Source of the DNA: Rhizomys pruinosus
Taxonomy: Eukaryota > Chordata > Mammalia > Rodentia > Spalacidae
Direction of reading: 5' to 3'
Assembly (NCBI GenBank): GCA_009823505.1
Contig: VZQC01005691.1
Span: forward strand, 1,728,969-1,792,968
DNA length: 64,000 nucleotides
Made by a program: the position numbers and the translations under genes. The notes below the pieces were generated by a model. It was given only the letters and a program-made list of their open reading frames with translations, was not told the DNA's origin and did not search any database. This document shows, piece after piece, positions 6,277 through 62,881 of the stretch. Position 1 is the stretch's first letter, and each line of letters begins with the position of its first letter.

Positions 6277-6784
6277 AGGATAAGTCAACTTGGCAGCGAG
6301 AAGGAAGCCCGGACACATCAAGTCATCCTCCTTTTCCGTGCCCCTTTTTATCTGGGCTGCCACCAGAAGGCGATGCCCATATTTGGGTAGGCCTTCCTAC
6401 ATCAGTGAAGGCAATTTAGACAATTGTCTCAATTGATGCTCTCTACTCAGGTAATTCTGATTTATGGCAAGATGTCATTAAAACTAACCATCATAACTCC
6501 CTAGCATCCTCCAAAGGATAACAGTTTTAAGCACGTTGAGGTATACTTATTAAATGAGGCTCATCCATAATGTACTGATGGTTCAAGACACAAATGGCCC
6601 ATGCATGGCTGGTGGGAAATGACTCAGGCTAGTCGCTCTTTTCTTTGGTAAGTACACTTCCCGAAGGATGAACATGTCTTTCCATATGCCTAGAATTAGC
6701 CCTTTTGCCTGAGATCCCTAGGTCCTTTCCTGGGGAAAGGATACTGCCTGAGTTGGGTACTGATAGGAAAGGGGAACTTTTGAT

Positions 6785-7016
6785 TCTTTTAATTATTTTT
6801 TTTATTTATTATTTTTTATGTGTATGAGTGTACTGTCTGCATGAAGGTTTGTGCACCCGTGTCGTGCAATGCCACAGAGGTCAGAAGAGGGTGTCGGATT
6901 CCCCTGGAACTGGAGTTAAAGACGGTTCTTAGCCACCATGTGGGTGCTGGGAATCGATCCCTGGTCCTCTGCAAGAGCAGTCGGTGCTCTTAACCACTGA
7001 ACAATCTCTCCAGCCC
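6785..7016 (-). mobile_element. B3-type SINE
   Basis: Antisense, no internal duplication, with target-site duplication GAACTTTTGAT at 6774-6784 and 7018-7028. Confidence 0.92.
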
Positions 7017-7076
7017 TGAACTTTTGATATTTTATCTGCTAACTTATCTACTGGCCTAGTCAGGCCCAACAAGGAA

Positions 7077-7078
<2 letters not shown>

Positions 7079-7126
<48 letters not shown>

Positions 7127-7171
7127 GAACCGTGTGTCTGTCTATCTGTCTGTCTGTCTGTCTGTCTCTCT
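7079..7171 (+). repeat. (GT)n and (TCTG)n microsatellites
   Basis: A GT run to 7124, a repeated GGAACCGTGTGT flank, then TCTG units to about 7171. Confidence 0.9.
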
Positions 7172-7228
7172 GTAGTGCATGTTACGCATGTGTGCATGTG
7201 TTATGCAAATTATGAAAGTATGTACCTA

Positions 7229-7378
7229 GCCGGGCATGGTGGCGCACTCCTTTAATCCCAGCATTTGGGAGGCAGAGAGGCAGGCAGATCTCTGTGAGTT
7301 CAAGTCCAGCATGGTCTACAGAGCTAGTTCTGGGCCAGCTGGGGCTACAGGGAGACCTTGTTTCAAAAACACCAAAAA
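7229..7378 (+). mobile_element. B1 SINE
   Basis: Sense B1 from GCCGGGCATGGTGGCGC with a short A-rich tail. Confidence 0.9.
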
Positions 7379-7439
7379 ATAAAAATCAATAAAATAAATA
7401 AAGCTGTTTAGTACATGAGCTGTTGTTGGGTGTTCATTT

Positions 7440-7633
7440 GTTTGAGACATGTAGCTCAGGCTGGCCTTGAACTTTCTGTATAGCTGAGAATGACCTTGAA
7501 CTTCTGATCCTTTTGACTATTGGGTGCTAAGATTACAAGTGAAGACCTCTAAACCCAGTTTAGGTGGTGCTGGGGATCAACCCTGGGGTTTCGGGTGTGC
7601 TGAGCAAGGACTCTACCTGGGAGTCCCCAGCCC
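7440..7633 (-). mobile_element. B4-type composite SINE
   Basis: Antisense B1-like left half (GTAGCTCAGGCTGGCCTTGAAC) joined to a tRNA-like right half ending ACCTGGGAGTCCCCAGCCC, the layout of rodent B4. Confidence 0.75.
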
Positions 7634-7892
7634 TTGAACTTTTAAAGATAGCCAGTGAAATCTGAATGTAGCAATTCGATATTCCTGTTAGACATTTTAA
7701 GATAGGTGGACACAGTTTTTTAATATAATGAGAAATCTTTGGTTCTCTTTTTGATTACTGCCCTAGAAGAGTTTGTTCTATTCTTTTGTCCTAATAATTT
7801 ATGCTTGATTACCTGGCAGTTTTCTATGTAAGATAAGTTACAAGTTGAAATGTTTTTAATATGTCTATAAGGCTTTGTTAAAATTATTGCTA

Positions 7893-8148
7893 GGGCTGGA
7901 GAGATAGCCTAGTGGTTAAGAGCACCAACTGCTCTTGCAGAGGACCCGGGTTCGATCCCCACCCACATGGCGGCTGATAACCGTCTGTAACTCCAATTCT
8001 AGGACAACCCCAGTTCCAGGGGAATCCGAGACCCTCTTCTGACCTCCACGGCATTGCACAACACGGGTGCACAAGCCTACATGCAGACAGTACATTCATA
8101 CACATACAAAAATAAATGAAATTTTTAAAAAATTAAAAAAATAAATAA
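7893..8148 (+). mobile_element. B3-type SINE with 17-nt internal duplication
   Basis: Full-length sense element with A-box TAGCCTAGTGG, B-box GGTTCGATCCC and a duplicated CTCCAATTC/CCCCAGTTCC region, with an A-rich tail. Confidence 0.9.
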
Positions 8149-8224
8149 AATTATTCCTAAATTATTGCTTAATGGTATTACATTTAAGTTTTCAAAGTAG
8201 AAAGACTTCTAGAGATTGTACGCA

Positions 8225-8345
8225 CTGAAACACGTTTGTAATCCCTGTAATCCCATCACTCTGAAGGCTGAGGTGGGAGAATCACTTAAGTTCAGGAGTT
8301 CCAGACCAGCCTAGGCAACACACAGAAAGGCTGGGGGGAGACCAT
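8225..8345 (+). mobile_element. Old 7SL-derived monomer (proto-B1/FLAM-like)
   Basis: Reads as an Alu/B1-ancestor monomer (TGTAATCCCATCACTCTGAA, GAGGTGGGAGAATCAC, CCAGACCAGCCTAGGCAAC). The central region keeps the ancestral form rather than the rodent B1 form. Confidence 0.65.
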
Positions 8346-9192
8346 TGTTAGAGAGAGAAAGAAGGAGGTATTTTAGGCACTGTTATTAATACTCCTGAGT
8401 TATATAAATGGCTAAGACCATTTATATTGGGAGTGGGGCCAAAGGAGTGGGAGGAAGGTTGTAAGACTGGCTGTGATCAAGGGACATTGTGTACGTGAAT
8501 GAGATTGTCATTGAATAAAAAGATACATATTCTAAAAGATATGAATAAACATTAAAAAACAATGGGAGGGCTTTAACCAAAGAACATTGTATATAAGTAT
8601 GAAATTATAAAATAATATATTTACACTTAAAACAAAAACAGCTAATGTGGTGACTTATAGAATTTTGCCTTTAAAAATTCTAAATTACATTTTTGCAGTT
8701 ATTATTAAACCATGATTTCACATAAGTGAAAATGTTGATAAATAATTGTAGGTCATCTAAAGTAAGCATCTTAAAAACCCTTCATTTAATGAGGTGTTCG
8801 CTGCTAATGTCCAGGCAGCTTGAATGCTTTGGCTGTTTTACCACTATCAGTGTCATCGCCAGCTTGAGCTTTGTGTTCATAAACAAATCAGATGCTGTGT
8901 AACTGAAAGTAAGGCAGGGAGTGTGAAAGCTCCTGGGAGAGCCAGATGAGTGAGGGGCCCGGGTTACAGGTGACAAGAGTAAGCGGTCATGGACTGTCAA
9001 TCATCTATTAGGTGGCAGTTCAGTGTCAACAACTTTTAATTTCATGGAAAGCAAGCAATAAGAAACCATTTGACTTGCAAGATTCAATACCTGGTCACTG
9101 GAAAGTAGAAAAAGGGGCTTTACCGAGAATTACATGGCAGAGGAACACCTATGAATTCCTTTACTTAGAGGCCTGTTTAATCTATTCTGTCT

Positions 9193-9349
9193 AGCTGGGC
9201 GTGGTGGCGCACGCCTTTAATCCTAGCACTTGGGAAGCAGAGGCAGGCGGATCTTTGTGAGTTCAAGGCCAGCCTGGTCTACAGAGTGAGTTCCAGGACA
9301 GCTGGGACTACAGGGAGACCCTGTCTCGAAAAGACCAAAAAAAAAAAAA
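9193..9349 (+). mobile_element. B1 SINE (left arm of an inverted pair)
   Basis: Sense full-length B1 with A tail. Target-site duplication ATCTATTCTGTCT before 9193 and at about 9348-9360. Confidence 0.92.
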
Positions 9350-9369
9350 TCTATTCTGTCTGAAATAAA

Positions 9370-9534
9370 AATTTTAATTATTTTTTTTTTTGGTCTTTTC
9401 AAGACAGGGTCTCCCTGTAGCCCCAGCTGGCCTAGAACTCACTCTGTAGACCAGGGTGGCCTTGAACTCACAGAGATCTGCCTGCTTCTGCCTCCCAAGT
9501 GCTAGGATTAAAGGTATGCACCACCACGCCTGGC
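9370..9534 (-). mobile_element. B1 SINE (right arm of an inverted pair)
   Basis: Antisense full-length B1 about 20 nt after the sense B1, with a T tail at left and an A run after 9534. Confidence 0.92.
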
Positions 9535-9549
9535 AAAAAAAAAAAAAAA

Positions 9550-10800
9550 TGAATTTTTAAAGAAATGTTTTTGTCACATCTCTTTTTTTCCAGTCTGAAC
9601 CTCATTGAACATCTCAGTTCTCTGTGCTCTGAATGGCAAAGCTAGCCACACCAACCAGAGCTTTTCTTAGGAAAGATTGAATTCCTTTCTCTTTTCAAAT
9701 TAACATATGAAAGTACACTTTGGGGAAAATTGTTTAAATGCTGAGGAATGCATTAGGCTCCATTTGGATTAGTGGTCCAGTGAGGTTGACATTGTTATAG
9801 AATTTGGGCATTTAATGTGTACGGTTCAGGGTACTGAAGCTGAGGTGAGGGGCGTTCATGTTCCTCCCTGCTGGAAAGACTCAAACAGGGATTGTATGTG
9901 AAAGAAATGTTCCTATAGCGTCAGTGCTCATGATTACAGTCCTTTATGTAGTCAGTGAAAAGAAAGGGCTGCACTAATTGGTCTGCCCTGAAAATCAGCA
10001 GACGTTGGCTATATATGATTGGAAAAATGAAGGTTGCCTACTTATGGAATAAATGTTCTGCGATTTGTTTAGGTGGCTAAATCTGAAAGAAATCACATAG
10101 AACTTATATCCTGTTTTATCCCTTGGATCTTAAAGTTTTGCTGCCCCATGTATGAAGACCAGCGTGGTATACAGGGTACTCCCTGATGTGAGTACATCCT
10201 TGGTTGAGTGCTGAGAAGCCTCGGCTTGTCCGTGAGTGATGAAGGAGTTTTACTCTGCACCCCAGCACTGGGGGACAGAGGAGCCCTTCCCTCTGCTGCT
10301 TCCTGTGCATAGTTCTGTGTCTCAAATTCTGTGTCCATACTTCCTCTATTCTACATGTGGGAAGCAACTGTGGGCTTTTGATTAGTCACTGAACGTAGCT
10401 TTTCCCAAGTATTGTTCCCTTGTTGATATTCTAGAAAGCATGGGTAGGTAAGAGGTTGGCTTTGTTTGAGGCAATCAAGGGATTGGGGAAAGCAGGTGCT
10501 TCTCAGGCAGGTCAGTCTTCACAAGGATCTCTGGAAGTTGATTCCCTTAAACCAGTGGTCCTCTGTGTGTGGCCCCCAGATTACGGTAGCATTAGTTTCT
10601 TCTGGAAACTTGTGAAAAACAAATTCTTGGGCCACATTCCAAATTCTTGAGACTCCACAGGTGATTTTTCTATACAAACCTTGGTGACTTGAGATGATTT
10701 GTCCAGTGTAATACCCACATGATGTAATGGCTACCTTTGTATTCTTTCATCGTTGCACATTTTGGAGCCCCTTTATTTACGTTTCTTTTTTAATAATTTT
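9550..10800. other. Intronic sequence without recognisable features
   Basis: No SINE, L1 core or conserved coding frame seen. Repeated almost base for base in copy 2 (about 17165-18400). Confidence 0.6.
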
Positions 10801-11065
10801 TTATTTTTATTTATTATTATTATTTTTTTTTAATTTTAATTTATTTTTGTATGTGTATGAATGTGCTGTCTGCATGCAGGTCTGTGCACCCGTGTCGTGC
10901 AATGCTGCGGAGGTCAGAAGAGGGTCTCGGATTCCCCTGGAACTGGAGTTCTCCTGGAATTGGAGTTACAGACGGTTCTCAGCCGCCATGTGGGTGCTGG
11001 GGATCGAACCCGGGTCCTCTGCAAGAGCGTCGGTGCTCTTAACCGCTAGGCTATCTCTCCAGCCC
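10801..11065 (-). mobile_element. B3-type SINE with 17-nt internal duplication
   Basis: Antisense full-length element. Together with the next B3 it lies between repeated CCCCTTTATTTAC / CCCCTTATTTAC flanks (about 10769 and 11269). Confidence 0.9.
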
Positions 11066-11066
11066 C

Positions 11067-11272
11067 TTATTTATTATTTTTATGCGTATGAATGTACTGT
11101 CTGCATTGCACCCATGTCATGCAATGCCACAGTGGTCAGAAAAGGGTGTCAGATTCCCCTGGAACTGGAGTTAAGGATGTTTCTTTGCCTCTATGTGGAT
11201 GCTGGGAATTGAACCCGGGTCCTCTGCAAGATCAGTCAGTGCTTTTAACCGCTGATCCATCTCTCCAGCCCC
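11067..11272 (-). mobile_element. B3-type SINE
   Basis: Antisense element without the internal duplication, directly abutting the previous one. Confidence 0.9.
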
Positions 11273-12060
11273 TTATTTACTTTTCTGAGCCAAGACCCTC
11301 AGGCCAGACTAACTAGGGCCATTTCCTTGGTATCCCTCGAGAACTGACTCATATGATCTGGTCTGGGGTCCTTGAGAGGTGACCTTAAGCTCTATGAACA
11401 GCTCCATAGGTCAGGGCCAAGGTTTGCAGAAAAAAAAAAATGTTGGCCCTGGGTATTTGCCATTGTGGAAGTCCCAATTACAGTCCAGAGAGGAGAAGTT
11501 TAATGCTATCTTCAGAAGAAAGACTGACTCATTTTCTCCCTCTGATTCTTGCTCTTGCTCTTTAACCTTTTAAAATTATTTTTCTTAAATTTGTTCTTTG
11601 ACAATTTTATACATGTATGTAACAAATTCTGATTGTTATCTCCCCACTACCACCACCCCACCAGTTCTTTTCTTAGATTCATGACTTTTGGGTTTAGTTT
11701 GGGGCCCATTCAGTTTAAACCAGGGCCATCTGTGTAACCATTAAATTGGAACTATCCATTGGAGCCTGGTGCGGTCAGAAGTAGGTACACAACTAAAGAC
11801 AATGACTTCCTCTCCCTCCTAATCTATCAGTAGTTAATAGTTTAGCAGTGAGGGGTAGGACCCTCTGAGTCCCTCCTCCATCCATGCCTATTGGTGCAAA
11901 CCCAGTGCAGGCAACTGCACCTGCTGTGGGTTCCTGATTGCAGTGCCTGTGTCTTGCTCAGAAGTTGCATTTCTCAGTCCTTCTCCCTGTATTCCACAGT
12001 GCCCTCTCTTCCACAGTGTTCTCTAAGCTTCAGAGAGGTTAGTATAAAAGTCTTGTTTAA
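11273..12060. other. Intronic sequence without recognisable features
   Basis: Nothing identifiable apart from short AT-rich runs. Open frames here carry no known domain. Confidence 0.55.
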
Positions 12061-12294
12061 GGGGCTGGAGAGATGGCCTAGTGGTTAAGAGCACCGACTG
12101 CTCTTGCAGAGGACCCGGGTTTGATCCCCAGCACCCACACGGCAGCTGAGAACTGTCTTTAACTCCAGTTCCAGGGGAATCCGACACCCTCTTCTGACCT
12201 CCATGGCATTGCATGACACGGGTGCACAAACCTACATGCAGACAGTACATTCATACACATACAAAATAAATAAAATTAAAAAAAATATTTTTAA
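12061..12294 (+). mobile_element. B3-type SINE
   Basis: Sense, no internal duplication. Target-site duplication AAAGTCTTGTTTA at about 12047 and AAAGTCTTGTTTG at about 12293. Confidence 0.92.
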
Positions 12295-12946
12295 AGTCTT
12301 GTTTGAGGCTGAGCTCTCATCCATCACATATTCTTAGCCCTTTACACAGCTGTGAGTCTCCCCACCAGTGTTCACTGGGAGAGACTTCTCTAATAAGGTT
12401 GGAAGTAGCATTTGTCTATAGGTATAAACATAAATACTTAAAAGGCAGTTTGACACTATGTTAATTTAGCTAAACAGCAGTATTCAACTTAGCCTCCTCC
12501 TTGGGCTGTGATCTCCCCACCATGATGGATTCCCTCCTGTGGAATGGGTCTCAAATCCAGTCAGCAGTTGGTTACCCCCATAACAGTGGTGCTGCTATTG
12601 TACAAATTGGCACATCTTACCTGGCCACTTGGTCTCATAGTTCACAGGTTCATGGCCGGCTCAAACTGCTGCTTTTCTTCTCCAGGAGCCCGCATGGAGC
12701 CTTCATCTTCTCCTCATCCTAGCTTCAGGTCTACAATATTTTGCATCCAACTTGGAGTTACTGTAGAAGCCAGGAAACTAGTTAAGAGGCCATTGGAAGT
12801 TGGGTTCCTTAAGGGAGGAAAGATAGTAGAATATAGGTACTATGAATATAGAAAGGGGGATTCTGGGAGTGGAAAGGTTTAAGTAGGGAGGGGTAGAAGA
12901 CAGGGAAAGGCCAACCAAAAGGAAGGGATATAAAAAAGCTATGTGA

Positions 12947-13093
12947 GCCAGGCCTGGTGGTGCACACCTTTAATTCCAACACTTGGGAGGCAGAGGCAGG
13001 TGGATCTCTGTAAATTCAAGACTACCCTGGTCTACATAGCAAGTTCTAGGCCAGCTGGGAATACAGGGAGACCTGTCTCAAAAAAAGACCAAA
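12947..13093 (+). mobile_element. B1 SINE
   Basis: Sense B1 flanked by AAAAAAGCTATGTGA (12932) and AAAATAAAGCTACGTGG (13093). Confidence 0.9.
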
Positions 13094-13137
13094 AAAATAA
13101 AGCTACGTGGAAACCTATTTTATAACCAAATTAGAAA

Positions 13138-13196
13138 TATATAATTTTTATATATGTGCATATATACATATATATGTACATATATATTTTAAAGAA
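13138..13196. repeat. AT/TATATG-rich simple repeat
   Basis: Imperfect TATATAC/GTATATA palindromic stretch, likely cruciform-prone. Confidence 0.8.
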
Positions 13197-13601
13197 TTTG
13201 AAGGGGGAGATCCTGTCTGGCTGAGAAAAGCTGCCAGGGGTGGAATACCTGTTTATAAGTTGTTGGTCAAGGAGTTCCCCAAGGACCCCAAACAGCATAG
13301 GTCCTTGCCGTTCCTCTGCCCACCATAGCTAGATGATTAGACCCTATTGTTGAAGAAACCATATGCCTTGGGTGCATGATATAGAGAAACCAAGCTGGAA
13401 CTGACTTAGAGCTTTCTCCCTGCTTAGCTTTCATAGTCCCTGAGGGTGCTTTTAAACACTTGTTAACGGTACCAGAATCCTCCATCTTACCTGCTTTGAT
13501 TTGTGAAAGATGCCTTACATATGGTTCTTCATATTTCCAGATTCCCTTCTACTTCAGATCCTTTGAAAGTGTGACTATTGGTCCTATTAAAATACATATC
13601 A

Positions 13602-13811
13602 GGGCTGGAGAGATAGCCTAGCGGTTAAGAGCACCGACTGCTCTTGCAGAGGACCCGGCACCCACATGGCGGCTAAGAACAGTCTGTAACTTCAATTCCA
13701 GGAGAACTCCAGTTCCAGGGGAATCCGACACCCTCTTCTGACCTTCGAGGCATTGCACGACATGGGTGCACAAACCTACATGCAGACAGTACATTCATAC
13801 ACATACAAAAA

Positions 13812-13854
<43 letters not shown>

Positions 13855-13855
13855 A
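13602..13855 (+). mobile_element. B3-type SINE with 17-nt duplication; right flank lost
   Basis: Sense element after left target-site duplication AAAATACATATCA (13589-13601), with a long (AAAT)n tail. The expected right duplication is absent here but present after copy 2 (21471-21483). Confidence 0.92.
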
Positions 13856-13859
13856 GTAT

Positions 13860-13976
13860 TCCTAGAGCTGGAAAGAAGGCTCAGTGGTTTAAAAAGGCTC
13901 TTACTGTTTTTACAGAAAGTGGGAGTTTGAGTTCCCAGCACTCATTCCAACAGTTCACAATTACCCCTAACTCCAG
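13860..13976 (+). mobile_element. Orphan B3-like fragment at contig end
   Basis: Diverged tRNA-SINE head and body (GAGCTGGAAAGAAGGCTCAG to CCCTAACTCCAG), truncated by the N. Not found after copy 2, so its true location is uncertain. Confidence 0.6.
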
Positions 13977-13977
13977 N
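13977..13977. other. Unresolved base (N), probable assembly join
   Basis: A single N between an orphan B3-like fragment and the start of the second 7.5-kb copy. Its position at the repeat junction suggests a nominal gap between contigs rather than a single miscalled base. Confidence 0.85.
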
Positions 13978-14299
13978 TTTATCAAATAATTTCATTAAAA
14001 CTAACCATCATAACTCCCTAGCATCCTCCAAAGGATAACAGTTTTAAGCACGTTGAGGTATACTTATTAAATGAGGCTCATCCATAATGTACTGATGGTT
14101 CAAGACACAAATGGCCCATGCATGGCTGGTGGGAAATGACTCAGGCTAGTCGCTCTTTTCTTTGGTAAGTACACTTCCCGAAGGATGAACATGTCTTTCC
14201 ATATGCCTAGAATTAGCCCTTTTGCCTGAGATCCCTAGGTCCTTTCCTGGGGAAAGGATACTGCCTGAGTTGGGTACTGATAGGAAAGGGGAACTTTTG

Positions 14300-14542
14300 A
14301 TTCCTTTTTTATTATTTTTTTTAATTTATTATTTTTTTAATGTGTATGAGTGTACTGTCTTCATATGAAGGTTTTGTGAACCCGTGTCGTGCAATGCACG
14401 GAGGTCAGAAGAGGGGTCGGATTCCCCTGAACTGGAGTTCTCCTTGAATTTGTTCTTAGCCACCATGTGTGCTGGGAATCGATCCATGGTCCTCTGCAAG
14501 AGCAGTCGGTGCTCTTAAACCACTGAACAATCTCTCCCGCCC
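14300..14542 (-). mobile_element. B3-type SINE (copy-2 counterpart of 6785-7016)
   Basis: Same element with many small indels. An apparent CTCC insertion and base losses differ from copy 1. Confidence 0.85.
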
Positions 14543-14608
14543 TGAACGTTTGATATTTTAATCTGCTAATTATCTCTACTGGCCTAGTCAGGCCCAACAA
14601 GGAAACCG

Positions 14609-14700
14609 TGTGTGTGTGTGGTGTGTGTGTGTGTGTGTGTGTGTGGTGTGGTGTAGGAAACCGTGTGGCTGTCTATCTGTCGGTCGGTCTGTCTGGTCTC
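14609..14700 (+). repeat. GT and TCTG/TCGG simple repeats (copy-2 counterpart of 7079-7171)
   Basis: GT run broken by extra G bases (GTGTGTGGTG), unlike the clean run in copy 1. Confidence 0.85.
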
Positions 14701-14764
14701 TCTGGAGTGCAGGTTTTGTATGCATGTGTGCATGTGTTATGCAAATTATGAAAGTATGTACCTA

Positions 14765-14930
14765 GCCGGGCATGGTGGCCGCACTCCTTTAATCCAGCAT
14801 TTTGGAGGCAGAAAAGAGGCGGCAAATCTCGGTGAGTTCAAGTCCAGCATGGTCTACAGAGCTAGTTTCTGGGCCAGCCCTGGGGCTCAGGGGAGACCTT
14901 GTTTCAAAAAAACACAAAAAATAAAAATCA
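14765..14930 (+). mobile_element. B1 SINE (copy-2 counterpart of 7229-7378)
   Basis: Same B1, with doubled bases such as GTGGCCGCAC and a stretched A tail. Confidence 0.85.
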
Positions 14931-14984
14931 TAAAATAAATAAAGCTGTTTAGTACATGAGCTGTTGTTGGGTGTTCATTTGGTT

Positions 14985-15190
14985 TGTTAGACTGTAGCTC
15001 AGGCTTGGCCTGGGGCTGAACTTTCTGTAAGTGCTGAGGACATGCCTTGAAACTTTGATCCTTTTGGACTATTGGGTGCTAAAGTTTACAAGTGAAAGAC
15101 CTCTAAACCCAGGTTTAGGTGTGCTGGGGGAATCAACCCTGGGTTTCGGGTGTGCTGGAGCAAGGACTCTACCTGGGAGTCCCCAGCCCT
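14985..15190 (-). mobile_element. B4-type SINE (copy-2 counterpart of 7440-7633)
   Basis: Same composite element with several insertions. Confidence 0.7.
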
Positions 15191-15457
15191 TGAACTTTTA
15201 AAGATAGCCAGTGAAATCTGAATGTAGCAATTCGATATTCCTGTTAGACATTTCTAGCATAGGTGGAACACAGTTTTTTTAATATAATGAGAAATCTTTG
15301 GTTTCTCTTTTTGAATTACTGCCCTAGAAGAGTTTGTTCTATTCTTTTGTCCTAAATAATTATTATGCTTGATTACCGGCAGTTTTCTCATGTAAAGATA
15401 AAGTTACAAGTTGAAATGTTTTTAATATGTCTATAAGGTTTGTTAAAATTATTGATA

Positions 15458-15745
15458 GGGCTGGGAGAGATAGCCTAGTGGTTAAGAGCAAGACCACCTT
15501 GCTCTTGCAGAGGACCCGGGTTCGATCCCCACCCACATGGCGGCTGATACCGGCGGACTAACTCCAGATTCGAGGACAAATTTTCCCCAGTTCCAGGGAA
15601 TCCGAGGAATCCCGTCTGGACCTCCCGGGCAGTTGCACAACCACGGGGGTGCAAACAGGCGTACATGGGCGACCAGTACATTCATACACAGTACAAAAAA
15701 TAAAAATAAAACTTTGTTAATAAAAATATTGAAAAAAAAAAATCA
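15458..15745 (+). mobile_element. B3-type SINE (copy-2 counterpart of 7893-8148)
   Basis: Same element lengthened by scattered insertions (for example AGAGCAAGACCACCTTGCTC in place of AGAGCACCAACTGCTC). Confidence 0.85.
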
Positions 15746-15824
15746 TAATTTTAAAGTATCCTAAATTTATTGCTTAATGGTATTACATTTAAGTTTTCAA
15801 AGTAGAAAGACTTCTAGAGATTGT

Positions 15825-15955
15825 ACGCACTGAAAAACCAACGTTTGTAATCCCTGTAATCCCATCACTCTGTGAAGGCTCTGGGTGGGAGAATCAACTT
15901 AAGTTCAGGAGTTGTCCAGACCAGCCTAGGCAACACACAGAAAGGCTGGGGGGAG
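15825..15955 (+). mobile_element. Old 7SL-derived monomer (copy-2 counterpart of 8225-8345)
   Basis: Same proto-B1/FLAM-like monomer with a few extra bases. Confidence 0.6.
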
Positions 15956-16812
15956 ACCATTGTTAGAGAGAGAAAGAAAAGGAGGTATTTTAGGCACTGT
16001 TATTAATACTCCTGAGTTATATAAAGGCTAAGACCATTTATATTGGGAGTGGGGCCAAAGGAGTGGGAAGGAAGGTTGTAAGACTGGCTGTGGATCAAGG
16101 GACAGTGTGGTACGTGAATGAGATGGTCAATTGAATAAAAAGAGCACATATTCTAGAAGATATGAATAAACATAAAAAACAATGGGAGGGCTTTAACCAA
16201 AGAACATTGTATATAGTATGAAATTATAAATTAATATATTTACACTTAAAACAAAAACAGCTAATGTGGTGACTTATAGAATTTTGCCTTTAAAAATTCT
16301 AAATTACATTTTTGCAGTTATTATTAAACCATGATTTCACATAAGTGAAAATGTTGATAAATAATTGTAGGTCATCTAAAGTAAGCATCTTAAAAACCCT
16401 TCATTTAATGAGGTGTTCGCTGCTAATGTCCAGGCAGCTTGAATGCTTTGGCTGTTTTACCACTATCAGTGTCATCGCCAGCTTGAGCTTTGTGTTCATA
16501 AACAAATCAGATGCTGTGTAACTGAAAGTAAGGCAGGGAGTGTGAAAGCTCCTGGGAGAGCCAGATGAGTGAGGGGCCCGGGTTACAGGTGACAAGAGTA
16601 AGCGGTCATGGACTGTCAATCATCTATTAGGTGGCAGTTCAGTGTCAACAACTTTTAATTTCATGGAAAGCAAGCAATAAGAAACCATTTGACTTGCAAG
16701 ATTCAATACCTGGTCACTGGAAAGTAGAAAAAGGGGCTTTACCGAGAATTACATGGCAGAGGAACACCTATGAATTCCTTTACTTAGAGGCCTGTTTAAT
16801 CTATTCTGTCTA

Positions 16813-16968
16813 AGCTGGGCGTGTGGCGCACCCTTTAATCCTAGCACTTGGGAAGCAGTAGGCAGCGGATCTTTGTGAGTTCAAGGCCAGCCTGGTCTAC
16901 AGAGTGAGTTCCAGGACAGCTGGGACTACAGGGAGACCATGTCTCAAAAGACCAAAAAAAAAAAAAAT
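16813..16968 (+). mobile_element. B1 SINE (copy-2 counterpart of 9193-9349)
   Basis: Same B1 with base losses (GTGTGGCGCACCC). Confidence 0.88.
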
Positions 16969-16989
16969 CTATCTGTCTGAAATAAAAAA

Positions 16990-17149
16990 TTTTAATTATT
17001 TTTTTTTGGTCTTTTCAAGACAGGGTCTCCCTGTAGCCCCAGCTGGCCTGAGAACCACTCTGTAGACCAGGGTGGCCTTGAACTCACAGAGATCTGCCTG
17101 CTTCTGCCTCCCAAGTGCTAGGATTAAAGGTAGCACCACCACGCCTGGC
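16990..17149 (-). mobile_element. B1 SINE (copy-2 counterpart of 9370-9534)
   Basis: Same antisense B1 with small indels. Confidence 0.88.
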
Positions 17150-18404
17150 AAAAAAAAAAAAAAAATGAATTTTTAAAGAAATGTTTTTGTCACATCTCTT
17201 TTTTTCCAGTCTGAACCTCATTGAACATCTCAGTTCTCTGTGCTCTGAATGGCAAAGCTAGCCACACCAACCAGAGCTTTTCTTAGGAAAGATTGAATTC
17301 CTTTCTCTTTTCAAATTAACATATGAAAGTACACTTTGGGGAAAATTGTTTAAATGCTGAGGAATGCATTAGGCTCCATTTGGATTAGTGGTCCAGTGAG
17401 GTTGACATTGTTATAGAATTTGGGCATTTAATGTGTACGGTTCAGGGTACTGAAGCTGAGGTGAGGGGCGTTCATGTTCCTCCCTGCTGGAAAGACTCAA
17501 ACAGGGATTGTATGTGAAAGAAATGTTCCTATAGCGTCAGTGCTCATGATTACAGTCCTTTATGTAGTCAGTGAAAAGAAAGGGCTGCACTAATTGGTCT
17601 GCCCTGAAAATCAGCAGACGTTGGCTATATATGATTGGAAAAATGAAGGTTGCCTACTTATGGAATAAATGTTCTGCGATTTGTTTAGGTGGCTAAATCT
17701 GAAAGAAATCACATAGAACTTATATCCTGTTTTATCCCTTGGATCTTAAAGTTTTGCTGCCCCATGTATGAAGACCAGCGTGGTATACAGGGTACTCCCT
17801 GATGTGAGTACATCCTTGGTTGAGTGCTGAGAAGCCTCGGCTTGTCCGTGAGTGATGAAGGAGTTTTTACTCCACCCCAGCACTGGGGGACAGAGGAGCC
17901 CTTCCCTCTGCTGCTTCCTGTGCATAGTTCTGTGTCTCAAATTCTGTGTCCATACTTCCTCTATTCTACATGTGGGAAGCAACTGTGGGCTTTTGATTAG
18001 TCACTGAACGTAGCTTTTCCCAAGTATTGTTCCCTTGTTGATATTCTAGAAAGCATGGGTAGGTAAGAGGTTGGCTTTGTTTGAGGCAATCAAGGGATTG
18101 GGGAAAGCAGGTGCTTCTCAGGCAGGTCAGTCTTCACAAGGATCTCTGGAAGTTGATTCCCTTAAACCAGTGGTCCTCTGTGTGTGGCCCCCAGATTACG
18201 GTAGCATTAGTTTCTTCTGGAAACTTGTGAAAAACAAATTCTTGGGCCACATTCCAAATTCTTGAGACTCCACAGGTGATTTTTCTATACAAACCTTGGT
18301 GACTTGAGATGATTTGTCCAGTGTAATACCCACATGATGTAATGGCTACCTTTGTATTCTTTCATCGTTGCAGCAATTTTGGAGCCCCTTTATTTACGTT
18401 TCTT

Positions 18405-18680
18405 TTTAATAATTTTTTATTTTTATTTATTATATTATTTTTTTTTAATTTAATTTATTTTTGTATGTGTATGAATGTGCTGTCTGCATGCAGGTCTGTG
18501 CACCCGTGTCGTGCAATGCTGCGGAGGGTCAAGAAGAGGTCTCGGATTCCCCTGGAACTGGAGTTCTCCTGGAATTGGAGTTACAGAACGGTTCTCAACC
18601 GCCATGTGGGTGCTGGGGACGAACCCGGGTCCTCTGCAAGAGCGTCGGGTGCTCTTACCGCTAGGCTATCTCTCCGCCCC
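18405..18680 (-). mobile_element. B3-type SINE (copy-2 counterpart of 10801-11065)
   Basis: Antisense B3 with the internal duplication, carrying indels around the head complement. Confidence 0.88.
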
Positions 18681-18889
18681 TTTATTTATTATTTTTATAA
18701 TGCGTATGAATCGTACTGTGCATTGCACCATGTCATGCAATGCCAAAGTGGTCAGAAAAGGGTGTCAGATTCCCCTGGAACTGGAGTTAAGGATGTTTTC
18801 TTTGCCTCTATGTGGATGCTGGGAATTGAACCCGGGTCCTCTGGCAAGATCAGTCAGTGCTTTTAACCGCTGATCCATCTCTCAGCCCC
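18681..18889 (-). mobile_element. B3-type SINE (copy-2 counterpart of 11067-11272)
   Basis: Antisense B3 without the duplication, with indels. Confidence 0.88.
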
Positions 18890-19677
18890 TTATTTTACTT
18901 TTCTGACCAAGACCCTCAGGCCAGACTAACTAGGGCCATTTCCTTGGTATCCCTCGAGAACTGACTCATATGATCTGGTCTGGGGTCCTTGAGAGGTGAC
19001 CTTAAGCTCTATGAACAGCTCCATAGGTCAGGGCCAAGGTTTGCAGAAAAAAAAAAATGTTGGCCCTGGGTATTTGCCATTGTGGAAGTCCCAATTACAG
19101 TCCAGAGAGGAGAAGTTTAATGCTATCTTCAGAAGAAAGACTGACTCATTTTCTCCCTCTGATTCTTGCTCTTGCTCTTTAACCTTTTAAAATTATTTTT
19201 CTTAAATTTGTTCTTTGAACAATTTTATACATGTATGTAACAAATTCTGATTGTTATCTCCCCACTACCACCACCCCACCACAGTTCTTTTCTTAGATTC
19301 ATGACTTTTGGTTTAGTTTGGGGCCCATTCAGTTTAAACCAGGGCCATCTGTGTAACCATTAAATTGGAACTATCCATTGGACCTGGTGGGTCAGCAGTA
19401 GGGTACACAACTAAAGACAATGACTTCCTCTCCCTCCTAATCTATCAGTAGTTAATAGTTTAGCAGTGAGGGGTAGGACCCCTGAGTCCCTCCTCCATCC
19501 ATGCCTATTGGTGCAAACCCAGTGCAGGCAACTGCACCTGCTGTGGGTTCCTGATTGCAGTGCCTGTGTCTTGCTCAGAAGTTGCATTTCTCAGTCCTTC
19601 TCCCTGTATTCAACAGTGCCCTCTCTTCCACAGTGTTCTCTAAGCTTCAGAGAGGTTAGTATAAAAGTCTTGTTTAA

Positions 19678-19910
19678 GGGGCTGGAGAGATGGCCTAGTG
19701 GTTAAGAGCACCGACTGCTCTTGGCAGGACCCGGGTTTGATCCCCAGCACCCACACGGCAGCTGAGAACTGTCTTTAACTCCAGTTCCAGGGGAACCGAC
19801 ACCCCTCTGACCTCCATGGCATTGCATGACACGGGTGCACAAACCTACATGCAGACAGTACATTCATACACATACAAATAAATAAAATTAAAAAAAATAT
19901 TTTTAAAGTC
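19678..19910 (+). mobile_element. B3-type SINE (copy-2 counterpart of 12061-12294)
   Basis: Sense B3 with base losses (CTCTTGGCAGGACCC, GGGGAACCGACACCCC). Confidence 0.88.
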
Positions 19911-20555
19911 TTGTTTGAGGCGGAGCTCTCATACCATCACATATTCTTAGCCCTTTACACAGCTGTGAGTCTCCCCACCAGTGTTCACTGGGAGAGACTT
20001 CTCTAATAAGGTTGGGAAGTAGCATTTGTCTATGGGTAAAACATAAATACTTAAAAGGCAGTTTTGACACTATGTTAATTAGCTAAACAGCAGTATCAAC
20101 TTAGCCTCCTCCTTGGGCTGTGATCTCCCACATGATGGAATTCCTCCTGTGGAATGGGTCTCAAATCCAGTCAGCAGTTGGTTACCCCCATAACAGTGGT
20201 GCTGCTATTGTACAAATTGGCCATCTTACCTGGCCACTTGGTCTCATAGTTCACAGGTTCATGGCCGGCTCAAACTGCTGCTTTTCTTCTCCAGGAGCCC
20301 GCATGGAGCCTTCATCTTCTCCTCATCCTAGCTTCAGGTCTACAATATTTTGCATCCAACTTGGAGTTACTGTAGAAGCCAGGAAACTAGTTAAGAGGCC
20401 ATTGGAAGTTGGGTTCCTTAAGGGAGGAAAGATAGTAGAATATAGGTACTATGAATATAGAAAGGGGGATTCTGGGAGTGGAAAGGTTTAAGTAGGGAGG
20501 GGTAGAAGACAGGGAAAGGCCAACCAAAAGGAAGGGATATAAAAAAGCTATGTGA

Positions 20556-20702
20556 GCCAGGCCTGGTGGTGCACACTTTAATTCCAACACTTGGGAGGCA
20601 GAGGCAGGTGGATCCTGTAAATTCAAGACTACCCTGGTCACTAGCAAGTTCTAGGCCAGCTGGGAATAAAGGGAGACCTGTCTCAAAAAAAAGACCAAAA
20701 AA
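20556..20702 (+). mobile_element. B1 SINE (copy-2 counterpart of 12947-13093)
   Basis: Sense B1 with a few missing bases. Confidence 0.88.
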
Positions 20703-21205
20703 ATAAAGCTACGTGGAAACCTTATTTTAAACCAATTTAGAAATATAAATTTTTTATATATGTGATATATACATATATATGTACATATATATTTTAAAGA
20801 ATTTGAAGGGGGAGATCCTGTCTGGCTGAGAAAAGCTGCCAGGGGTGGAATACCTGTTTATAAGTTGTTGGTCAAGGAGTTCCCCAAGGACCCCAAACAG
20901 CATAGGTCCTTGCCGTTCCTCTGCCCACCATAGCTAGATGATTAGACCCTATTGTTGAAGAAAACCATATGCCTTGGGTGCATGATATAGAGAAACCAAG
21001 CTGGAACTGACTTAGAGCTTTCTCCCTGCTTAGCTTTCATAGTCCCTGAGGGTGCTTTTAAACACTTGTTAACGGTACCAGAATCCTCCATCTTACCTGC
21101 TTTGATTTGTGAAAGATGCCTTACATATGGTTCTTCATATTTCCAGATTCCCTTCTACTTCAGATCCTTTGAAAGTTGACTATTGGTCCTATTAAAACAT
21201 ATTCA

Positions 21206-21415
21206 GGGCCTGGAGAGATAGCCTAGCGGTTAAGAGCACCGACTGCTCTTTGCAGAGGACCCGGCACCCACATGGCGGCAAGAACAGTCTGTAACTTCAA
21301 TTCCAGGAGAACTCAGTTCCAGGGGAATCCGACACCCTCTTCTGACCTTCGAGGCATTGCAAGACATGGGTGCACAAACCTACATGCAGACAGTACATTC
21401 ATACACATACAAAAA

Positions 21416-21466
<51 letters not shown>

Positions 21467-21470
21467 AAAT
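21206..21470 (+). mobile_element. B3-type SINE (copy-2 counterpart of 13602-13855)
   Basis: Sense B3 with (AAAT)n tail and a clean right target-site duplication AAAATACATATCA (21471-21483). The left duplication reads AAAACATATTCA, an indel-damaged form. Confidence 0.9.
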
Positions 21471-21916
21471 AAAATACATATCAAACCATGACAGCTCTTA
21501 GCTAAAAAATAGAACACCTAGCCCTTGAGGGTGCAGGAAGATGACAAAGAAGTCTGACCAAAGTTTCCTGTCCTGCCTTTAAGCTTGCTCAGCCCTGCTG
21601 AGGGGCCCAGGAGCTGTGCCATTGTCACGGACCCTGTGTCTGCCGAGGCTTTTTAATGAACATTGATGATGCTTTTACAATTGGCCTGTCCAATCCTGTG
21701 CTCAGGCTATCACCCCACATGGATGGGGGTTGGGGGGATAGTCTCTGGTCAGTTGAGAAGAAGAACTGTTCCTCCATTAGTGCTTTTTCATTAATCCCCC
21801 TTCTTCCTGCCTGGAGCATTCTTACTTGGTTATGAGAACACAACATGGGGCCATTCAAGGACCTCACGGAGGCTTAGTAACCACTTTGTTCTGTGAACAA
21901 ACTGCTCCTCTACTAG

Positions 21917-21960: not shown

Positions 21961-22183
21961 TTTGGGGCTGAATTCCGAAGGTTCTCCTTGGACCGTCATA
22001 AGCCTGGGAAGTTTGAAGATTTTTACCAGTTAGTCGTGCACACCCACCACATCGCTAACACCGAAGTCACCATCGGCTATGCTGATGTGCATGGGGACCT
22101 GCTGCCCATCAACAATGACGACAACTTCTGCAAGGCAGTCTCCAGTGCAAACCCCTTGCTCAGAGTCTTCATCCAGAAGCGAG
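21961..22183 (+). CDS. Pard6g: Pard6g exon 2: most of the PB1 domain of PAR6 gamma
   Basis: This exon encodes 74 codons plus one base of partitioning-defective 6 gamma, an adaptor that links atypical PKC, CDC42/RAC and PAR3 at the apical or junctional cortex. It begins in phase 0 with [11 protein letters not shown] and ends FIQKR plus the first base of a Glu codon. It spans nearly the whole PB1 domain, including the acidic OPCA-like stretch [17 protein letters not shown]. In PAR6 proteins PB1 docks on the aPKC PB1; the basic Lys used for this is normally encoded just upstream, in exon 1. The acceptor is TTTTACATTGCAG and the donor GAG|GTACGA. The gamma paralogue call rests on the exon 3 tail. 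Without splicing the frame runs on to a stop ending at 22254, so splicing at 22183 is required for the full protein. The frame is open with no damage. Confidence 0.95.
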
Positions 22184-44514: not shown

Positions 44515-44630
44515 AGCCGGGAGTGGTGAGGCACGTCTTTAATCCTAGCACTCCGGAGGCAGAGGCAGGTGGATCTTTGTGAGTTCAAGGCCAGCCTGGT
44601 CTACAGAGTGAGTTCCAGGCCAGCTGGGGC
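44515..44630 (+). mobile_element. B1 SINE, truncated at the N
   Basis: Sense B1 from GCCGGGAGTGGTGAGGCACG to CAGCTGGGGC, then N. Confidence 0.9.
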
Positions 44631-44631
44631 N
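44631..44631. other. Unresolved base (N), probable gap between two B1 elements
   Basis: The N interrupts what reads as a B1 element ending CAGCTGGGGC, followed by the head of another B1 beginning CGGGCGTGG. An L1 segment expected between the flanks is missing, so the N is likely a gap placeholder. Confidence 0.75.
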
Positions 44632-44797
44632 CGGGCGTGGTGGCGCACGCCTTTAATCCTAGCACTTGGGAGGCAGAGGCAGGCGGATCTTTGTGAGTTC
44701 AAGGCCAGCCTGGTCTACAGAGTGAGTTCCAGGACAGCTAGGGCTGCAGGGAGACCCTGTCTCAAAAAGACAAAAAAAAAAAACAAAAAAAAAAAAA
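44632..44797 (+). mobile_element. B1 SINE, starting at the N
   Basis: Sense B1 lacking its first two bases, with a long A tail, followed directly by L1 sequence. Confidence 0.9.
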
Positions 44798-62024: not shown

Positions 62025-62881
62025 AAGAGGCAGACCATTACAGCTTTGGGGCAGGCACTCTGTCAAGGAAGAAGAAGGTGCTGGTGACACTGAGGGACGA
62101 GGGCCCACGTCGGCGCACCCACCTCGACATTGGCATGCCACAGGACTTCCGCCCTGTGTCCTCCATCATTGACGTGGACATCCTCCCTGAGACGCATCGG
62201 CGAGTGAGACTCTACCGACATGGCTGTGAAAAGCCACTGGGCTTCTACATTCGAGATGGCACCAGCGTTCGAGTGACCCCGCATGGCCTGGAGAAGGTAC
62301 CTGGCATCTTCATTTCCCGAATGGTGCCCGGGGGCCTCGCAGAGAGCACCGGGCTGCTGGCTGTGAATGATGAAGTCCTGGAGGTGAACGGGATTGAGGT
62401 GGCCGGAAAGACATTGGATCAAGTCACAGATATGATGATCGCCAACAGCCACAACCTTATTGTCACTGTCAAGCCTGCCAACCAGAGGAACAACGTGGTC
62501 CGTAGCAGCCGCACATCGGGCAGCTCTGTCCAGTCCACAGACATCACCGCCAGTCACCACAGCCTGACAGCTGCCCATATCCTACAGAATTTCCACCCTG
62601 AGGAGATGGAGAGTGATGAGGAAGCCGACATCGTCATTGAGGGGGTCCTGGAGCCTATGCCCATTCTCAAGACGCAGGGCGTAGCTCCAGGGAGCCTCTC
62701 CAGGGCCAATGGCACCAGCCTTGCTCACAGGCTGCATAGGGACTTGGCCCTGCATAGCTCTGGGAGGGAGAGCAACGGAAGCATCCACAAATTTCTCAGC
62801 TCCCTGAAACCAGAGCCCCGCAACAGCCTGATCCTCCCGCAAGGAGGGGTGGAGGAACACGGGCCAGCTATCACACTCTAG
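62025..62881 (+). CDS. Pard6g: Pard6g last coding exon: linker, semi-CRIB, PDZ and C-terminal tail
   Basis: This exon encodes 284 residues plus the completed Glu of PAR6 gamma. Numbering assumes 24 residues from exon 1. A basic linker (RKKKVL, about 113-118) precedes the semi-CRIB (about 133-152, with PVSSIIDVD), which in PAR6 binds GTP-CDC42/RAC together with the PDZ. The PDZ (about 157-250) has carboxylate loop PLGFYI, then [16 protein letters not shown] and [11 protein letters not shown]. In this family the PDZ binds Crumbs and PALS1 tails and is tuned by CDC42. A less conserved Ser-rich linker and acidic segment ([13 protein letters not shown]) follow. The tail [12 protein letters not shown] matches the PAR6 gamma C-terminus and separates it from PAR6 alpha and beta. 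Total length is about 383 residues, normal for the rodent orthologue. The frame is open throughout. An antisense open frame (62063-62578) is a shadow of this exon. Confidence 0.96.

What the first reader, a model, noticed from the sequence alone, without database searches (positions are those of the whole stretch)
6475..21483. 7.5-kb direct repeat across an N is probably a false duplication
Seen: 6475-13855 and 13992-21470 are the same sequence in the same order, including every SINE, with offsets between 7517 and 7619. Unique parts are identical across hundreds of bases, and only one N lies between the copies. Inference: a contig end and a gap-fill that overlap but were not merged. If read literally it would add 7.5 kb to Pard6g intron 1 just before exon 2.
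Basis: partly seen in the sequence, partly recalled or inferred. Interest (0 to 1): 0.75.

Follow-up and report, generated by a model that had tools for sequence, protein, structure and literature searches.

The report
False 7.5-kb duplication at assembly gap
A 7.5-kilobase stretch in a rodent gene's first intron appears twice only because an error-rich long-read copy was left beside a good copy of the same DNA at an unresolved assembly gap; it is an ordinary assembly mistake, not a real duplication.

Summary
The repeat is really in the sequence but is very probably false in biology. Copy A (6461-13855) and copy B (13978-21469) align in order at 95.7-96.0% identity; B starts on the base after the single N (13977). 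B is a noisy copy of A: 247 differences, 50% insertions, 32% deletions, 18% substitutions (10 transitions, 34 transversions). Of 170 difference clusters, 58 favour A, 1 favours B and 111 are undecided when compared with other DNA of this genome. SINEs of B have more indels than those of A in 9 of 9 pairs. The left contig ends in a chimeric tip: 13856-13976 also occurs in scaffold C353, reached through a shared B2 3' end. The B2's 14-bp target-site duplication is clean on the 5' side only in A and present on the 3' side only after B, so the copies are two readings of one locus. The unique interior gave two matches in the whole assembly, both here. Most likely a long read anchored in the right contig was pasted leftwards over DNA already present, and the foreign tip prevented merging: a homotype false duplication, lengthening Pard6g intron 1 by about 7.6 kb, 491 bp before exon 2. 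Reads were not available; depth is untested.

The parts
6461..13855 (+). Copy A: the accurate copy, up to the end of the (AAAT)n tail of a B2 SINE; the array itself may already belong to the chimeric tip
   Evidence: favoured in 58 of 170 difference clusters, disfavoured in 1, undecided in 111
13588..13601 (+). 5' target-site duplication (14 bp) of the B2 element, intact in copy A
   Evidence: this 14-mer occurs at two places in 264 kb, here and at 21470
13602..13855 (+). B2-type SINE with (AAAT)n tail in copy A (11.8 units of AAAT)
   Evidence: the name B2 is recalled
13856..13976 (+). Chimeric contig tip: identical to C353:1622097-1622217
   Evidence: 272-bp match 13705-13976, one mismatch at 13745; 13857-13976: 14 matches, two at 100%, the other 12 at 85% or less
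13977..13977 (.). Single N: unresolved join between contigs
   Evidence: one of 7 single-N gaps in 264 kb of this scaffold
13978..21469 (+). Copy B: noisy, long-read-like copy of 6461-13855 (false duplicate)
21470..21483 (+). 3' target-site duplication of the same B2, present only after copy B: the true right-hand junction
21961..22183 (+). Pard6g exon 2 (PB1 domain), 491 bp after copy B; not affected
   Evidence: Pfam PB1 E=2.5e-15; splice boundaries read from the sequence printed

Best explanation
One genomic stretch is represented twice. The left contig is accurate, but its last 121 bases (and perhaps its AAAT array) are a wrong extension: in the 3' half of a B2 SINE the assembler crossed into another B2 copy, whose proper place is scaffold C353. 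The right contig was extended leftwards by an insertion-prone long read (or a thin consensus), incompletely corrected, running from the B2 at about 21.4 kb back over 7.5 kb already present in the left contig. The true gap between the accurate contigs was about zero or negative. Because the left contig's last bases were foreign, no overlap was recognised, and the two were left side by side with one N. Shown: the repeat, the one-sided errors, the foreign tip, the split target-site duplication, two matches genome-wide. Inferred: the long-read platform, the gap-filling step, and why merging failed. Odds: about 0.95 that this is a false duplication of some kind, about 0.75 for this version of it.
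For: Copy B starts on the base after the N. 247 differences: 124 insertions, 79 deletions, 44 substitutions in B relative to A (50/32/18%); the PacBio profile used in the PBJelly paper is 9% insertions, 4% deletions, 2% mismatches (PMC3504050, passages read). Substitutions are 10 transitions to 34 transversions: compatible with random (p=0.15 against 1/3), unlike neutral evolution if that is taken as 2/3 transitions (p=3e-9; the 2/3 is recalled). Polarity: of 170 clusters, 58 have the A form commoner in 259,650 bp of other own-genome DNA, 1 the B form, 111 undecided. SINEs of B have more indels against family members than those of A in 9 of 9 pairs, Wilcoxon p=0.004. Events are denser in repeats than in unique DNA: 107 vs 53 per kb (6461-8612) and 36 vs 10 per kb (8613-13855), as expected if short reads corrected mainly unique parts. 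Target-site duplication clean 5' only in A (corrupted in B), 3' only after B. Tip 13856-13976 = C353. Unique interior 9540-10740: 2 matches in the 3.67-Gb assembly, both here.
Against: No reads, coverage or second assembly could be examined. Identical stretches of up to 713 bp mean B is not raw read throughout, so a correction step must be assumed. Single-N gaps do not generally carry such overlaps: none touching the gap at the 5 upstream, and a 113-bp B1/B1 match at 44631. Indel-rich SINEs elsewhere are not enriched within 8 kb of single Ns: 7 of 62 near, 11 of 95 far, p=1. The noise threshold (indel/mismatch ratio 0.25) was chosen after seeing A and B; by raw indel rate 5 of 27 other window SINEs also exceed 3%, all of them old (mismatch 14% or more). 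One-base deletions are not concentrated in homopolymers (33 of 70, expected half). One published CLR data set is deletion-rich (PMC5964698, passages read), so the profile does not fix the platform.
Confidence: 0.75

Rival explanations
1. False duplication, but copy B is the low-coverage end of an independently assembled long-read or hybrid contig, placed next to the left contig by a scaffolder, rather than a gap-filler's extension.
For: Noise is highest at the end next to the N: 57 and 87 events in the first two kb, 4 to 25 per kb in the later full kb, as expected at a thinly covered contig end.
Against: By the indel/mismatch ratio, 0 of 27 other window SINEs are noisy, including those after 21469, so the right contig as a whole does not look long-read quality; the noise stops about where the left contig's true sequence ends. 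Unique DNA after 21469 cannot be judged this way.
Confidence: 0.2
2. Heterotype false duplication: the two copies are the two parental haplotypes of a heterozygous locus, assembled side by side.
For: Adjacent copies separated by a gap are typical of it (PMC2864568 and PMC9516828, passages read).
Against: Differences are 82% indels, transversion-rich, denser in SINEs and one-sided (58 to 1, 111 undecided); haplotypes should differ mainly by substitutions, on both sides.
Confidence: 0.03
3. True recent tandem duplication of 7.5 kb in Pard6g intron 1.
For: Two collinear copies in the assembly, high identity.
Against: The breakpoint coincides with an N; copy A runs into sequence found in another scaffold; the target-site duplication is split between the copies; errors are one-sided and indel-rich.
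Confidence: 0.02

Closest known systems
Homotype false duplication (Vertebrate Genomes Project term; PMC9516828, passages read)
   Same: [quoted passage not shown] gap between the copies; same scaffold; no sign of two haplotypes.
   Different: Here a chimeric contig tip in a SINE probably also blocks the overlap; read depth, part of the published criteria, could not be tested.
Overfilled gap of long-read gap filling (PBJelly; PMC3504050, passages read)
   Same: Flank-extending sequence is placed into a gap, no overlap between the two sides is identified, and more sequence is placed than the gap predicts.
   Different: The authors read overfilled negative gaps as wrong joins that should be split; here the join itself looks right. 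The filler actually used is unknown, and the passages read give no source for a remaining gap of one N.
Duplicated overlapping contigs (PMC2864568, passages read)
   Same: Two neighbouring contigs whose ends overlap are placed in tandem.
   Different: That paper's cause is haplotype divergence; here one copy carries read-like errors.

Membership tests
Homotype false duplication | Gap between the duplicated pair on the same scaffold | tested here: met
   Single N at 13977, copy B starts at 13978
Homotype false duplication | One copy carries sequencing errors rather than haplotype variants | tested here: met
   One-sided, indel-rich differences; judged from the assembly only
[quoted passage not shown] discordant read pairs | not testable with these tools
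   No reads held
Heterotype (haplotype) false duplication | Differences behave like allelic variants on both copies | tested here: not met
   58 clusters favour A, 1 favours B, 111 undecided; 10 transitions, 34 transversions
Overfilled long-read gap | Extension next to the remaining gap with a long-read error profile | tested here: met
   Noise in 13978-21469 next to the N; insertions > deletions > substitutions
Overfilled long-read gap | More sequence placed than the scaffolder's predicted gap, without recognised overlap | not testable with these tools
   No assembly records; the sequence implies a true gap of about zero
True tandem segmental duplication | Each copy with its own intact junctions | tested here: not met
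   Copy A lacks the 3' target-site duplication and runs into sequence of C353

The most novel reading that the evidence does not exclude
This is one instance of a recurrent artefact in this 3.67-Gb assembly: chimeric SINE tips on short-read contigs block merging with long-read extensions and leave many multi-kilobase tandem copies next to single Ns, inflating intron lengths and part of the apparent genome size. In the 264 kb examined, 1 of 7 single-N gaps shows it.
Probability: 0.25. Interest if true: 0.25.

Novelty: not a real feature. Interest (0 to 1): 0.08.

Why it matters
Only as quality control. Taken literally it adds about 7.6 kb (21469 minus 13855) to Pard6g intron 1 as a false segmental duplication, and it places 121 bases of another locus here. 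It also shows how such errors can be recognised from the assembly alone: a split target-site duplication, one-sided indel noise in SINEs, and a contig tip that matches another scaffold.

Tried and rejected
True duplication and haplotype duplication were considered and rejected on error polarity, substitution type and the split target-site duplication. The idea that single-N gaps in this scaffold generally hide overlaps was not supported: of the other six single-N gaps in 264 kb, five show no match touching the gap (12 kb searched on either side), and 44631 shows a 113-bp, 92% B1-to-B1 match without gaps, better read as two SINEs. The idea that noisy SINEs gather near single Ns was not supported (7 of 62 within 8 kb, 11 of 95 farther, p=1), although noisy patches exist upstream (18 of 130 SINE intervals, nine of them in C1409:1544822-1550674), probably closed long-read fills. 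The first MAFFT alignment used gap settings that turned indels into false substitutions (283); I took counts from the second alignment. A search for a published single-N convention (then passages of two papers) gave no source; that some scaffolders write one N for a negative gap is recalled only.

Full report
What is there. The window is G000:C1409:1728969-1792968 of a 3.67-Gb assembly in 3,921 contigs. Copy A (6461-13855) and copy B (13978-21469) are collinear; BLAST gives 96.0% identity with 67 mismatches and 194 gap openings over 7,544 columns, and a global alignment 95.74% over 7,583 columns. Offsets drift from 7517 to 7621. The first bases of B pair, noisily, with 6461, so B begins at the first base after the N at 13977.

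One copy is noisy. The alignment has 247 difference events: 124 insertions and 79 deletions in B relative to A, and 44 substitutions, of which 10 are transitions. Of 89 one-base insertions, 68 repeat a neighbouring base, where 43% would be expected for random bases; one-base deletions show no such preference (33 of 70 in homopolymers, half expected). To decide which copy is wrong I grouped the events into 170 clusters and counted each form, with 6 flanking columns, in 259,650 bp of other DNA of the same genome: 58 favour A, 1 favours B, 111 are undecided (with 7 flanking columns 55, 1 and 114; with 8, 45, 1 and 124). A second measure is the indel rate of each SINE against other family members: B is higher than A in 9 of 9 pairs (Wilcoxon p=0.004); with a threshold set on the indel/mismatch ratio after seeing the data, 8 of 9 SINEs of B are noisy, 0 of 9 in A and 0 of 27 in the rest of the window. 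By raw indel rate 5 of those 27 also exceed 3%, all of them old elements with at least 14% mismatch. So copy A is good and copy B carries the errors; SINEs after 21469 look normal again, while unique DNA there cannot be judged this way.

Pattern of the noise. Event rates are higher in repeats than in unique DNA in both parts of the copy: 107 vs 53 per kb in 6461-8612 and 36 vs 10 per kb in 8613-13855 (Fisher p=4e-5 and 4e-9). Exact runs of up to 713 bp occur. The simplest reading, an inference, is a long read corrected with short reads where these place uniquely, and poorly corrected in SINEs and near its far end. The mix (50% insertions, 32% deletions, 18% substitutions) resembles the PacBio profile given in the PBJelly paper (9%, 4%, 2%; PMC3504050, passages); another paper lists a deletion-rich CLR data set (PMC5964698, passages), so the platform is not proven.

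The junction. Copy A ends in a B2-type SINE with an (AAAT)n tail. The 14-mer just before this B2 (13588-13601) occurs at only one other place in the 264 kb held, 21470-21483, right after the B2 in copy B. It has the place of the B2's target-site duplication: the 5' one is intact in A and corrupted in B, the 3' one exists only after B. Copy A instead continues into 13856-13976, which matches C353:1622097-1622217 exactly; of 14 matches of 13857-13976 in the assembly, two are at 100% (here and C353) and the other 12 at 85% or less. The match to C353 runs from 13705 to 13976 with one mismatch, at 13745, where A agrees with B and not with C353; the shared stretch 13746-13855 is therefore where the left contig could have crossed over. 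The AAAT array length in A equals that of C353 (no gaps in the 272-bp match), not that of B (11.8 vs 13.8 units), so the array of A may already belong to C353. In C353 the seven-base word TATTCCT flanks the B2 cluster on both sides (sequence printed), weak support that the junction is native there.

Copy number and context. The unique interior 9540-10740 has two matches in the whole assembly, both in this pair. The flanks could not be searched. The locus is Pard6g: exon 1 (MNRSFHKSQTLRLYDCSAVEVKSK) lies at C1409:1696932, about 32 kb before the window; exon 2 is 21961-22183 with a PB1 domain; a PDZ-coding exon begins at 62025, and its best matches among solved structures are Par6 proteins. Copy B ends 491 bp before exon 2, so no coding sequence is affected. 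The same intron also holds a gap of 20,583 N at C1409:1708386.

Mechanism. The left contig, wrong only at its tip, and the accurate right contig, which starts near 21.4 kb, should meet in or next to the B2. A long read anchored in the right contig ran back over 7.5 kb of DNA already in the left contig. With a foreign 121-base tip on the left contig the overlap was not recognised, and both were kept, separated by one N. This is close to what the PBJelly authors call an overfilled gap: extensions from the two sides without identifiable overlap and more sequence than the predicted gap. They assign 444 of 1,007 such gaps in one draft to regions labelled as negative gaps, which they read as wrong joins that should have been split; here the join itself looks right. 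In the terms of the false-duplication literature it is a homotype false duplication (PMC9516828, passages), of the overlapping-contig type (PMC2864568, passages) without the haplotype cause. Which gap filler was used, and whether the single N marks a negative gap, are inferred or recalled. The main rival, that copy B is the noisy end of a separate long-read contig, is also a false duplication.

How general. In 264 kb of this scaffold there are seven single-N gaps and two longer ones; only 13977 has a long flanking repeat. Noisy SINE patches occur elsewhere (18 of 130 upstream intervals), but not preferentially near single Ns (p=1).

Verdict. It is an assembly artefact of a known type and of low interest beyond quality control. 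The untested, decisive evidence is read depth and spanning reads.

Noticed in passing
G000:C1409:1544822-1550674 (upstream of the window): Nine SINE intervals in 6 kb with unusually many indels against their family: probably a closed, poorly corrected long-read gap fill.
   Followed up: partly
G000:C1409:1676093-1680560 (upstream of the window): A 4.5-kb tandem array with a unit of about 49 bp, copies about 95-96% alike.
   Followed up: no
44518-44788: The second single N (44631) lies between two B1-type SINE pieces; the 113 bases on either side are 92% alike without gaps, better read as two SINEs than as a duplicated one.
   Followed up: partly
G000:C1409:1708386: A gap of 20,583 N inside Pard6g intron 1; a gap of 66 N lies at 1555316.
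   Followed up: no
L009/L010 (C353:1621600-1622320): A cluster of nested or joined B2 pieces that shares 110 identical bases with the B2 at 13746-13855, the likely crossover point of the chimeric contig tip.
   Followed up: partly
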